In this document: in pieces, positions 2,698 through 56,901 of the stretch
How the letters are laid out: every line of letters starts with the position of its first letter
Position numbering within the stretch: position 1 is the stretch's first letter
Assembly (NCBI GenBank): GCA_035540635.1
Contig: DATLGH010000045.1
Coordinates: 1 to 64,000, forward strand
DNA from: Egibacteraceae bacterium
GTDB lineage: Bacteria > Actinomycetota > Nitriliruptoria > Euzebyales > Egibacteraceae
Length of the DNA: 64,000 nucleotides
Reading direction: 5' to 3'
Program-made: the position numbers and the translations under genes
Notes under the pieces: generated by a model
The model's input: only the letters and a program-made list of their open reading frames with translations
The model's database searches: none
What the model was told of the DNA's origin: nothing

Positions 2698-4269
2698 ATG
2701 AAGGTCCTCGTCGCCGACACCCTCTCCGAGGCCGGCGTCGCCGCGCTGTCCGAGCACGCCGAGGTCGACGTCCGCACCGGTCTGGACAAGTCCGCGCTCG
2801 TCGCGGCGATCCCGGAGTACGACGCCGTCGTGGTCCGCTCAGCGACGACGATCGACGCCGACGTCATCGCTGCGGCCCGCAACCTCAAGGTGATCGCCCG
2901 CGCCGGCATCGGCCTCGACAACGTCGACGTGGCGGCCGCGACCGCCCGTGGCGTCATCGTCTGCAACGCGCCGCAGTCGAACGTCATCAGCGCCGCCGAG
3001 CACACCGTGGCGCTCCTGCTCGCCCTGGCCAGGCGGATCCCCGAGGCCCACCAGAGCCTCCGGCGGGGGGAATGGAAGCGCAGCGCCCTCGAGGGGATGG
3101 AGCTGCACGGCAAGACGCTCGGCCTCCTGGGGCTCGGGCGGGTCGGCACGCTCGTCGCTCAGCGCTGCCACGCGTTCGGCATGCGCCTCCTCGCCTACGA
3201 CCCGTTCGTGTCGGCCGAGCGGGCCGCGCGCATGGGGGCGGAGCTCGTCGGGTCGGTGCAGGAGCTGTGCGCCGCCGCCGACGTCCTCACCGTCCACCTG
3301 CCGAAGTCAGCCGAGACCGTCGGCATCATCGGCGAGCCGGAGCTGCGCGCCATGAAGCCGAGTGCGCGCGTCGTCAACACCGCACGGGGCGGCATCGTCG
3401 ACGAGGACGCGCTCTACACCGCGCTGAGCGAAGGCTGGATCGCCGGTGCGGCGCTCGACGTCTTCTCCACCGAGCCGATGACCGACTCGAAGCTGTTCCG
3501 CCTCGACAACATCGTCGTGACCCCGCACCTCGGCGCCTCCACGACCGAGGCCCAGGACAAGGCGGGCACGATGGTCGCCGAGGCGGTGGTGCTCGCCTTG
3601 AGGGGCGACTTCGTGCCCAGTGCGGTCAACGTGCAGGTGGGCGCGGGTATCCCCGAGGCGGCCCGCCCGTTCATGCCGCTCGCCGAGAAGCTCGGGCGGC
3701 TGTGCACGGCGTTGCGGGCCGGGTCCACGGCGGAGGTCACCGTCGAGTACGTCGGGCGCATCGCCGGCGAGGACACCCAGGCCGTGACGCTGTCGGCGCT
3801 GAAGGGCCTGCTCACCGATGTCGTGCACGAACCGGTCACGTTCGTCAACGCCCCGCTGCTCGCCGAGGAGCGCGGCCTGAAGATCTCCACCGTCGCGTCG
3901 GCGTCCACGGAGGACTACGTGTCGCTCGTGCGGGTCCGCGCCGGCGAGGTCGAGGTGGCGGGCACGCTCGTCGGGCCGGCCAACCGGGAGCGTCTCGTGG
4001 CCGTCTGGGGGTTCGGCGTCGACATGGAGCCCGCCGACCACATGGTGTTCTTCCGCTACGCCGACCGTCCCGGCGTCGTCGGGATCATCGGCGGCGAGCT
4101 CGGGGAGGCGCAGGTGAACATCGCGAGCATGCAGGTCGGCCGTCAGGAGGCCGGCGGCGAGGCGCTCATAGCCATGACCGTGGACTCCGCGGTGCCATCC
4201 GACGTGGTCGAGCGGATCGCGGCCACTATCGGCGCGACGGACGCCCGGGCCATCGACCTGGTGAGCTGA
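2698..4269 (+). CDS. serA: D-3-phosphoglycerate dehydrogenase, long form
   Basis: A 523-residue type-1 phosphoglycerate dehydrogenase, the first committed enzyme of serine synthesis. The substrate-binding domain (ARAGIGLDNVDVAAATARG) and NAD-binding domain (GLLGLGRVGTLVAQR, then NTARGGIVDE and TPHLGASTTEAQDKAG with the catalytic His) occupy about residues 1-310. An allosteric substrate-binding region and a C-terminal ACT domain (about 450-523, VVGIIGGELGEAQVNIASMQ) follow, as in mycobacterial SerA. The frame extends upstream to 2623, but the ATG at 2698 places MKVLVADTL at the usual N-terminus. The next gene begins one base after its stop. Confidence 0.96.
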   Translation: MKVLVADTLSEAGVAALSEHAEVDVRTGLDKSALVAAIPEYDAVVVRSATTIDADVIAAARNLKVIARAGIGLDNVDVAAATARGVIVCNAPQSNVISAAEHTVALLLALARRIPEAHQSLRRGEWKRSALEGMELHGKTLGLLGLGRVGTLVAQRCHAFGMRLLAYDPFVSAERAARMGAELVGSVQELCAAADVLTVHLPKSAETVGIIGEPELRAMKPSARVVNTARGGIVDEDALYTALSEGWIAGAALDVFSTEPMTDSKLFRLDNIVVTPHLGASTTEAQDKAGTMVAEAVVLALRGDFVPSAVNVQVGAGIPEAARPFMPLAEKLGRLCTALRAGSTAEVTVEYVGRIAGEDTQAVTLSALKGLLTDVVHEPVTFVNAPLLAEERGLKISTVASASTEDYVSLVRVRAGEVEVAGTLVGPANRERLVAVWGFGVDMEPADHMVFFRYADRPGVVGIIGGELGEAQVNIASMQVGRQEAGGEALIAMTVDSAVPSDVVERIAATIGATDARAIDLVS

Positions 4270-54899: not shown

Positions 54900-55059
54900 A
54901 GAGACCACACGCACCTGGCCCGCGTCCGCGGCTGCATCCCGCGGCTGCCGAGCGGCGCGCTTGTGCGGCCGACCGCGACCCGGCACACTCCAGGGGATGT
55001 TCGCCTCGCAGCTCGAGTCCGCGCGCCACCCGTCGGCGTGTTGCGGCGCGCGCGCCCGC

Positions 55060-55095
55060 ATGGCGGCGACCATCATCATTGGACCGCTCCTGTAG
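55060..55095 (+). CDS. Isoleucine-type leader peptide of cimA
   Basis: An 11-codon ORF, MAATIIIGPLL, ending TAG 99 bases before cimA. Three consecutive Ile codons (ATC, ATC, ATT), then two Leu, match the end products of the pathway: citramalate synthase starts isoleucine synthesis and ilvE lies just upstream. Codon-run leader peptides of this kind control amino-acid operons by ribosome stalling. Weakness: no obvious Shine-Dalgarno before the ATG and short length. The call rests on codon content and position only. Confidence 0.6.
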   Translation: MAATIIIGPLL

Positions 55096-55168
55096 GACCG
55101 GTTGCCCGTGCCGGCCCGCAGGAGCGGCGGCACGGAGCAGTGCCCCCGCCACCTCGCAGCCGGAGCGG
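55084..55168 (+). promoter_or_regulatory. Alternative RNA pairings downstream of the Ile leader
   Basis: CCGCTCC in the leader (55084-55090) is complementary to GGAGCGG at 55121-55127 and again at 55162-55168. The first GGAGCGG sits in the loop of an 8-bp hairpin CCGTGCCG / CGGCACGG (55106-55135). That hairpin also competes with GGCAC / GTGCC (55129-55144). Such mutually exclusive pairings are typical of attenuators. The remaining 160 bases upstream hold only a 10-bp direct repeat, CCGCGGCTGC, near 54925-54948 and a weak promoter-like TTGTGC at 54961-54966. Confidence 0.5.
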
Positions 55169-55194
55169 GCAGCCCCCGAGAACAAGGTGGGCTC

Positions 55195-56901
55195 GTGGCT
55201 CGCAACCTCCTCGCAGCAGGGCTGCACGCACCGGTGGACGTCACGCCCGTGGACGTCTACGACACGACGTTGCGCGACGGCACGCAGCGCGAAGGCATCT
55301 CGCTCACCGTGGCCGACAAGCTGCGGGTCGCGGCGGAGATCGACTCGCTCGGTGTCAGCTACATCGAGGGTGGGTGGCCGGGTGCGAACCCAAAGGACAC
55401 TGAGTTCTTCCGCCGGGTGGCCGCGGGCGAGCTGCAGCTGCGCCGCGCCGTGCTCACCGCCTTCGGCATGACCCGCCGCCCGGGTGGCGCGGCGGGGAAC
55501 GACCCGACCCTCGCTGCGCTGCTCGAGGCCGCGACGCCGGTCGTGTGCCTCGTCGGCAAGTCCGACATCCTTCACGTCACCGAGGCGCTCGGGACGACGG
55601 CGGAGGAGAACCTCGCCATGGTCGCCGACTCCGTGCGCCTGCTGCGGCGTGAGGGGCGCCGGGTGTTCTTCGACGCCGAGCACTTCTTCGACGGCCATGC
55701 GCGCGACCCGTCCTACGCGCTGGAGGTGCTCGCCGCGGCGGCCGGCGCCGGCGCCGAGTGCGTCGTGCTGTGCGACACGAACGGCGGGGCCCTGCCCGAC
55801 CGGGTCGAGGCCGTCGTTCGCGAGGTCGTCGGTGTCCTCGGCGACACCCAGGTGGGCGTGCATGTGCACAACGACACCGACTGCGCCGTCGCCAACTCGC
55901 TCGTGGCGGTGCATGGAGGCGCGACCCACGTGCAGGGCACCGTGAACGGCATCGGGGAGCGCTGCGGCAACGCGAACCTCATGTCGATCATCCCCAACCT
56001 CAAGGTCAAGCTCGGCATGGACGTCGTGGGCGACGACGACCTGCGGCGGCTGTCGCACGTCGCGCACGCCGTCGCGGAGGTGATGAACACCACGCCGGAC
56101 CCCCACGCGCCGTACGTCGGCCACGCCGCCTTCGCGCACAAGGCCGGGCTGCACGTCTCGGCGCTGGCGAAGCGCGAGGACCTCTACCAGCACGTCGAGC
56201 CGGCCAGGGTCGGAAACGTTCTGCGGCTGCTCGTGAGCGAGCTCGCCGGACGCTCGACGGTCGTGCTGAAGGGCAGGGACTTCGGTCTCGATCTCACCGC
56301 CGACGGGGACGCGGTGAACCGCATCCTCGGCCGGGTCAAGGAGCTCGAGCACGCCGGCTATGCCTTCGAGGCGGCCGACGCCTCCTTCGAGCTGCTCGTC
56401 CGCAGCGAGATGGGCGAGGACGTGCATGCGTTCACGCTCGAGAGCTTCCGGATCATCGTCGAGCGGCGGGAGGACGGACGCATGGTCGCCGAGGCCACCA
56501 TCAAGCTGTGGGTCCCGGGTGAGGGCGACGCCGGCGGGCGGGGATATCGGGGTGAGGGCGTCGCCGGAGGCGACGCCGGCGGGCGGGGATATCGGGGTGA
56601 GCGGCTCATCGGGACGGGTGAGGGCAACGGCCCCGTCGACGCGCTCGACCAGGCCTTCCGCGCCGCGGTGAACGGCCGGTTCCCCGGGCTCGCGAAGCTG
56701 CACCTCGCCGACTACAAGGCCCGCATCCTCGACTCGGACTCCGGCACCGCTGCGACGACCCGGGTACTGATCCGCTCGAGCAACGGCGAGCGCGAGTGGG
56801 ACACCGTCGGCGTGTCGGCGAACGTGATCGAGGCGTCGTGGCTGGCCATGGCCGATGCGTACACCTACGGCCTGCGCGAGCAGCAGGACGCGGATGCGTG
56901 A
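55195..56901 (+). CDS. cimA: Citramalate synthase
   Basis: A 568-residue HMGL-family enzyme from the GTG at 55195, preceded by AAGGTGGG. VDVYDTTLRDGTQREGISLT, YIEGGWPGANPKDTEFFRRV, VHVHNDTDCAVANSLVAVHG (metal His) and VNGIGERCGNANLMSIIPNL mark it as CimA rather than LeuA. It condenses pyruvate and acetyl-CoA to citramalate, giving isoleucine without threonine deaminase. The C-terminal LeuA-type regulatory domain follows a linker with a 15-residue duplication (GDAGGRGYRGE twice) at about residues 444-470. It follows the Ile leader. An alternative GTG is at 55234. Confidence 0.93.
   Translation: MARNLLAAGLHAPVDVTPVDVYDTTLRDGTQREGISLTVADKLRVAAEIDSLGVSYIEGGWPGANPKDTEFFRRVAAGELQLRRAVLTAFGMTRRPGGAAGNDPTLAALLEAATPVVCLVGKSDILHVTEALGTTAEENLAMVADSVRLLRREGRRVFFDAEHFFDGHARDPSYALEVLAAAAGAGAECVVLCDTNGGALPDRVEAVVREVVGVLGDTQVGVHVHNDTDCAVANSLVAVHGGATHVQGTVNGIGERCGNANLMSIIPNLKVKLGMDVVGDDDLRRLSHVAHAVAEVMNTTPDPHAPYVGHAAFAHKAGLHVSALAKREDLYQHVEPARVGNVLRLLVSELAGRSTVVLKGRDFGLDLTADGDAVNRILGRVKELEHAGYAFEAADASFELLVRSEMGEDVHAFTLESFRIIVERREDGRMVAEATIKLWVPGEGDAGGRGYRGEGVAGGDAGGRGYRGERLIGTGEGNGPVDALDQAFRAAVNGRFPGLAKLHLADYKARILDSDSGTAATTRVLIRSSNGEREWDTVGVSANVIEASWLAMADAYTYGLREQQDADA
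56524..56601 (+). repeat. In-frame 33-bp direct repeat inside cimA
   Basis: The same 33 bases occur at 56524-56556 and 56569-56601, separated by 12 bases, giving a 45-bp period. Both encode GDAGGRGYRGE in the linker before the regulatory domain. The spacer GGCGTCGCCGGA with the next GGCGACGCC forms a 9-bp hairpin. It is in frame, so cimA stays open. Confidence 0.9.

What the first reader, a model, noticed from the sequence alone, without database searches (positions are those of the whole stretch)
55060..55095. MAATIIIGPLL leader peptide in front of cimA
Seen: an 11-codon ORF with three consecutive Ile and two Leu codons sits 99 bases before citramalate synthase. Inference: an isoleucine-sensing attenuator for the citramalate route. 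Attenuators are well known for ilv and leu operons; I am not aware of one established for cimA, so this could be undescribed.
Basis: partly seen in the sequence, partly recalled or inferred. Interest (0 to 1): 0.72.

Follow-up and report, generated by a model that had tools for sequence, protein, structure and literature searches.

The report
Isoleucine-sensing leader before cimA
Just before the first gene of an alternative isoleucine pathway there is a short decoy gene rich in isoleucine codons plus a switchable RNA hairpin, conserved in many actinobacteria, which very probably lets ribosomes sense isoleucine shortage and turn the pathway on; I found no earlier report of this gene being controlled this way.

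Summary
The ORF is real, but 55060 is an internal, non-conserved start. The conserved leader starts at ATG 54997 (MFASQLESARHPSACCGARARMAATIIIGPLL*), 7 nt after a promoter-like TTGTGC-17-CACACT. ATHATHATH occurs once in the window; the Ile-run-plus-stop pattern occurs once in the 3.46-Mb genome. In the host class (probably Nitriliruptoria) a covariance model hits 50/66 genomes; the 30 best all lie upstream of cimA and end ..IIIxPLP* or close variants. Ile codons vary almost only synonymously, while the next codons co-vary with a downstream partner: protein-level and RNA-level constraint side by side. Two mutually exclusive hairpins follow: P1 (leader end + UAG) and P2. No U-tract and no conserved SD sequestration were found, so the OFF step is inferred. 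Outside the class, 52/75 actinobacterial cimA loci carry an II-leader (controls 0/72, 0/75, 3/225); 41 also have a leader-end hairpin and a TTTT tract. Streptomyces is positive too. No Rfam family and no paper in the searched open library describes a cimA attenuator. Verdict: a genuine, apparently undescribed Ile-responsive attenuator; a new variant of a known kind.

The parts
54961..54989 (+). promoter-like element TTGTGC - 17 nt - CACACT; -10 ends 7 nt before the leader ATG (probably leaderless transcript)
   Evidence: sequence; TTGnnn-17/18/19 nt-[CTG]AnnnT found at the same place upstream of the conserved leader start in 19 of 28 distinct relatives
54997..55095 (+). leader ORF, 32 codons + TAG: MFASQLESARHPSACCGARARMAATIIIGPLL*
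   Evidence: conserved in-frame start about 24-37 codons before the stop in relatives
55060..55095 (+). the finding's 11-codon ORF; the C-terminal third of the leader, its ATG internal and not conserved
55072..55080 (+). sensor: three Ile codons ATC ATC ATT (codons -7,-6,-5 before the stop)
   Evidence: Ile at -5 in 28/28, -6 in 26/28, -7 in 19/28; ATC/ATT only, no ATA; unique in genome
55084..55092 (+). P1 5' arm (A) CCGCTCCTG = last three leader codons
   Evidence: pairs 9/9 with 55119-55127; compensatory changes across relatives
55119..55127 (+). P1 3' arm (C) CAGGAGCGG; also forms most of the loop of P2
55098..55114 (+). inner helix of P1: CCGGT (55098-55102) with GCCGG (55110-55114)
   Evidence: 4-7 bp in all 28 relatives; P1 in window -31.7 kcal/mol
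55106..55135 (+). P2, the competing hairpin: CCGTGCCG (55106-55113) with CGGCACGG (55128-55135); not followed by a U-tract
   Evidence: 3-11 bp, median 8, in 28 relatives (short, 3-5 bp, in four of them), with changed but still paired arms; -19.5 kcal/mol with a ribosome masking the stop
55184..55194 (+). Shine-Dalgarno-like AAGGTGG and spacer to the cimA start
55195..56901 (+). cimA, citramalate synthase (controlled gene)
   Evidence: TIGR00977, 657.5 bits, cut-off 450

Best explanation
An isoleucine-responsive, ribosome-mediated attenuator of cimA. Transcription starts at or a few nt before ATG 54997 (inferred). A ribosome translates the 32-codon leader. When charged tRNA-Ile is scarce it stalls on the first Ile codon(s); the arm CCGCUCCUG starts 12 nt further on, about where the leading edge of the stalled ribosome lies, so the large hairpin P1 (leader end + UAG + inner helix + CAGGAGCGG) can form and P2 cannot: transcription continues and cimA is made. 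When Ile is plentiful the ribosome runs to the UAG and covers the P1 5' arm; P2 forms instead, and the transcript is stopped before cimA, either by P2 acting as a terminator without a U-tract or by Rho loading on the C-rich untranslated spacer. Shown: leader, Ile-codon conservation, covarying P1, mutual exclusivity of P1 and P2, position before cimA. Inferred: stalling, direction of the response, identity of the OFF step. I give about 0.9 to 'Ile-sensing attenuator' and about 0.55 to the P1-ON / P2-OFF assignment.
For: Sensor conserved at codon level with synonymous ATC/ATT exchanges. P1 arms exchange bases in pairs: 90% of cells paired, 6 double-sided changes against 1.5 in shuffles, 0/500; the window's own CTG/CAG replaces the usual CCG/CGG. 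P2 re-pairs with different arms in relatives. One strong hit in the own genome (next best E 0.66), 50/66 class genomes with hits, the 30 best all before cimA with an Ile leader. Same sensor plus a covarying leader-end hairpin plus a T-tract before cimA in other Actinomycetota (covariation 31 double-sided cells, 0/500). The same logic is experimentally supported for M. tuberculosis ilvB1, where changing LVVI to AAAA abolishes the response (PMC13236596).
Against: No expression data. No U-tract after P2 (0/28 with TTTT). The direction is not forced by the anatomy: stalls on the 2nd or 3rd Ile codon would also mask the P1 arm. The C-rich spacer (C 45.7%, G 30.3%) was not compared with other 5' UTRs of these genomes. 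In the other architecture (P1 next to a classical terminator) P1 and the terminator do not overlap, so base-pair competition cannot explain antitermination there. In S. coelicolor, changing ilvB leader codons had no effect (cited in PMC1262725).
Confidence: 0.75

Rival explanations
1. Translational attenuation (ermC-like): a ribosome stalled on the 2nd/3rd Ile codon masks the P1 arm, P1 opens, and a downstream rearrangement frees the cimA ribosome-binding site.
For: The Ile codons closest to the hairpin (-5, -6) are the most conserved; no intrinsic terminator in this lineage.
Against: No conserved pairing between P1's 3' arm and the spacer, or between the spacer and the cimA SD, beyond shuffled spacers: most z-scores near 0, few individual hits. 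Elsewhere in the phylum the corresponding position carries a T-tract hairpin, i.e. transcription control.
Confidence: 0.2
2. The leader encodes a functional micropeptide or an arrest peptide sensed through the nascent chain (C-terminal PLP-stop), not a codon-based sensor.
For: The peptide tail IIIxPLP is recurrent.
Against: The N-terminal part is not conserved; the PLP codons change with compensatory changes in the RNA partner (Pro to Leu in the window with CGG to CAG), so RNA pairing explains their conservation.
Confidence: 0.04
3. Chance short ORF without function.
For: Short ORFs are frequent in GC-rich DNA.
Against: Unique Ile run in window and genome; conserved in tens of genomes against 0/72, 0/75, 3/225 and 0/155 in controls.
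Confidence: 0.01

Closest known systems
ilvB1 attenuator of M. tuberculosis (LVVI uORF; PMC13236596)
   Same: leader ORF with BCAA codons; stalled ribosome allows an anti-terminator, ribosome at the stop prevents it; branched-chain biosynthetic target
   Different: target is acetohydroxyacid synthase, not cimA; mixed L/V/I codons; a Rho-independent terminator is present, whereas the window's element has no U-tract
Actinobacterial ilvB leaders, incl. Corynebacterium ilvB-II motif (PMC10272879, PMC1262725)
   Same: short BCAA-rich ORF overlapping a hairpin before a BCAA gene
   Different: gene, sequence and structure differ; terminator with U-run; no Rfam match for the cimA element
LEU element before leuA in Actinobacteria (PMC1262725)
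   Same: amino-acid-specific codon run plus alternative RNA structures, no obvious terminator
   Different: LEU pairs its Leu-codon run with the leuA SD and forms a pseudoknot; here the sensor codons are outside the conserved pairs, the pairing arm lies after them, and SD pairing is not conserved
Classical trp/ilvGMEDA/leu attenuators of enterobacteria
   Same: ribosome position on a leader ORF selects between mutually exclusive hairpins
   Different: those end in an intrinsic terminator; citramalate synthase is not among their targets (own knowledge)

Membership tests
ribosome-mediated amino-acid attenuator | leader ORF with a run of codons for the pathway's end product | tested here: met
   three Ile codons before cimA, Ile at -5 in 28/28 relatives
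ribosome-mediated amino-acid attenuator | mutually exclusive RNA structures placed so that ribosome position can select between them | tested here: met
   P1 and P2 share 55106-55114 and C; covariation of P1; arm starts 12 nt after the first Ile codon
ribosome-mediated transcription attenuator of the classical (trp) type | intrinsic terminator (hairpin + U-run) as one of the structures | tested here: not met
   no TTTT in any of 28 class members; a leader-end hairpin plus TTTT is present in 41/75 actinobacterial relatives outside the class
ribosome-mediated amino-acid attenuator | expression responds to starvation and depends on the sensor codons | not testable with these tools
   needs reporter assays
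LEU element | run of Leu codons | tested here: not met
   Ile codons
LEU element | sensor codon run pairs with the SD of the controlled gene | tested here: not met
   sensor codons lie outside the conserved pairs; pairing of the spacer with the SD not above shuffles
Any Rfam family incl. T-box and ilvB motifs | match at the gathering score | tested here: not met
   window, only chance matches; nine relatives, none
M. tuberculosis ilvB1-type attenuator | anti-terminator freed by a stall and masked by a ribosome at the stop codon | tested here: inconclusive
   geometry fits; the effect was not measured

The most novel reading that the evidence does not exclude
In this class the cimA leader is a ribosome-mediated attenuator without an intrinsic terminator: the leader's own stop codon lies in the anti-repressor hairpin P1, and the OFF state is a U-less or Rho-dependent stop. 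The same Ile sensor exists with a normal terminator in Streptomyces and other Actinomycetota, so one sensing principle has been wired to two different output devices before the same gene.
Probability: 0.45. Interest if true: 0.6.

Novelty: new variant of a known kind. Interest (0 to 1): 0.52.

Why it matters
It adds the entry enzyme of the threonine-independent isoleucine route to the genes controlled by leader-peptide attenuation, over a wide part of Actinomycetota including Streptomyces, and explains how that route could be tied to isoleucine supply. It offers a natural comparison of a terminator-equipped and a terminator-less device behind the same sensor. For isoleucine, propanol or butanol engineering through citramalate, the leader would be a control point to know about.

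Tried and rejected
(1) Pairing of P1's 3' arm with the spacer (C:E) and of the spacer with the cimA SD (E:SD), which single folds suggested in several species: not better than dinucleotide shuffles overall, so a conserved SD-sequestration switch is rejected. (2) H-type pseudoknot of P1 and P2: judged unlikely because in many members almost no linker separates C from the P2 3' arm; mutual exclusion preferred (inference). (3) Classical 2:3 antiterminator in the terminator-bearing relatives: in the masked minimum-energy folds the terminator stays, no competing pairing found. (4) Known RNA family: no Rfam match. (5) A phylum sample of one or a few genomes per family shows the leader in only 9/60 (control 2/59), so it is not universal; one reason is that in some families the leader sits before leuB-ilvE rather than directly before cimA.

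Full report
Observation. The 11-codon ORF is at the stated place, 99 nt before the GTG start of a protein that passes the citramalate synthase equivalog TIGR00977 by a wide margin; upstream lie leuB and ilvE, downstream a fumarylacetoacetate-hydrolase family gene and gltX. A run of three Ile codons is rare in this GC-rich DNA: ATHATHATH occurs once in the window (0.20 expected), and the run followed by four codons and TAG occurs once in the whole 3.46-Mb assembly.

Leader boundaries. In the relatives the ATG at 55060 is not conserved (a few have a GTG near that codon), whereas an in-frame ATG/GTG about 24-37 codons before the stop is regularly present. In the window this is ATG 54997, giving MFASQLESARHPSACCGARARMAATIIIGPLL*. 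A promoter-like TTGTGC-17-CACACT ends 7 nt before it; a comparable arrangement stands in 19 of 28 relatives, with a 5-12 nt gap to the start codon. The leader is therefore probably transcribed leaderless, as reported for several leader peptides of S. lividans (PMC8079986). In several of the remaining relatives a purine-rich, Shine-Dalgarno-like stretch precedes the start by eye.

Two kinds of constraint in one short ORF. Codon -5 is Ile in 28/28, -6 in 26/28, -7 in 19/28, written ATC or ATT and never ATA: selection on the amino acid. The following three codons, by contrast, follow a distant RNA partner: CCGCTCCCG pairs with CGGGAGCGG, and the window's CCGCTCCTG with CAGGAGCGG. On alignment A1, 90% of cells pair, with 6 two-sided changes against 1.5 in shuffles (0/500) and far fewer pairs when the partner is slid.

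RNA anatomy. P1 consists of the leader end paired with 55119-55127 around an inner helix (55098-55102 with 55110-55114); in several relatives the UAG stop itself is paired in single-sequence folds. P2 pairs 55106-55113 with 55128-55135 and uses the P1 3' arm as its loop; its arms differ between relatives yet stay paired (e.g. TGCCGGGCTG/CGGCCCGGCA in L030, GGACCGGGCTG/CGGCCCGGTCC in L099), though it is short (3-5 bp) in four of the 28. The two share bases and cannot both form fully. P1 is the stronger (-31.7 against -19.5 kcal/mol in the window; medians -32.4 and -17.6), so P2 is expected only when something masks the leader end. The P1 arm starts 12 nt after the first base of the -7 Ile codon, about the reach of a stalled ribosome.

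Distribution in the class. Model R1 finds the element in 50 of 66 class genomes, usually once per genome, once strongly in the own genome. All 30 best hits, checked in sequence, carry an Ile leader whose stop is 118-205 nt before the conserved YDTTLRDG motif near the N terminus of CimA. The class is probably Nitriliruptoria, judged by the names of the closest public loci, L032 and L033. One family lacks the element before cimA; in two of its genomes a weaker hit stands before an unidentified small ORF.

Beyond the class. Among 75 other cimA loci, mostly Streptosporangiales, Nocardioidaceae, Micrococcales relatives and Acidimicrobiia, 52 have a leader with consecutive Ile codons near its stop, 45 with a hairpin at the leader end, 41 also with a TTTT tract; controls give 0/72, 0/75 and 3/225 (sequences). 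This set was picked by similarity to the query and holds related genera, so 52/75 is not a prevalence: in a sample of 60 spread over families the figure is 9/60 (control 2/59). The large-genome genus of family f23, which I read as Streptomyces from genome size and sequence, is positive (leader ..MLSFATIIGSRRAGPQ* with a T-tract hairpin). The leader-end hairpin outside the class is supported by strong covariation (31 two-sided changes, shuffled mean 9.2, 0/500). Some families place the same leader before leuB-ilvE instead.

Mechanism. The geometry matches the experimentally supported ilvB1 attenuator of M. tuberculosis, where a stall allows the anti-terminator and a ribosome at the stop prevents it, and where mutating the sensor codons abolishes induction (PMC13236596). 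By analogy I assign P1 to Ile shortage (ON) and P2 to Ile sufficiency (OFF). The weak point is the OFF step: none of 28 class members has a TTTT tract downstream, and pairing of the spacer with the SD is not above chance. The spacer is C-rich (C exceeds G in 27/28), which would suit Rho, but I did not compare it with other 5' UTRs.

Known or new. No Rfam family matches. Ten searches of an open-licence library found attenuators for ilvB, leuA, leuS, trp and cys genes in Actinobacteria, but none for cimA; the S. lividans list of eight leader peptides lacks it. Subscription papers, notably Lopatovskaya et al. 2010, could not be read, and unnamed premature transcription units of Streptomyces Term-seq studies (PMC8269248) may include it. 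I file it as a new variant of the known ribosome-mediated attenuators, not as a LEU element or an ilvB motif.

Noticed in passing
window 34222-34332: leuA (34421-35995) in the same window has its own leader ORF ending in six Leu codons: MQTDATASGTARASRAAVGGVWLLPAPLPGLLLLLL*, like the LEU element leaders.
   Followed up: partly
L242, L232, L246: In some families the Ile leader (..VIIIP*..VIIIE*..PVIIR*) with a terminator-like hairpin stands before a leuB-ilvE gene pair (identified by eye) instead of directly before cimA.
   Followed up: partly
L247, L248, L249: Genomes of one family without a cimA match have weak R2 hits within 1-2 kb of ilvD- or ilvB-like genes (by eye; relative orientation not checked).
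   Followed up: no
L255 about 1440-1590: A Val-run leader (..GTVVVFV*) with hairpin and T-tract stands before an unidentified gene: a possible valine-sensing attenuator.
   Followed up: no
L149 about 290-480, L150 about 3200-3350 (minus strand): In two genomes whose cimA lacks the element, an R1-like element with an Ile leader (..LIIRSVT*..RIIRSAT*) precedes a small ORF (MPNIHTLLVRHRG.. in L149) without a Pfam match.
   Followed up: partly
window about 56512-56620: The window's CimA carries an in-frame repeat-like insert (GEGDAGGRGYRGEGVAGGDAGGRGYRGER) around residues 443-468; matches in many relatives break there.
   Followed up: no
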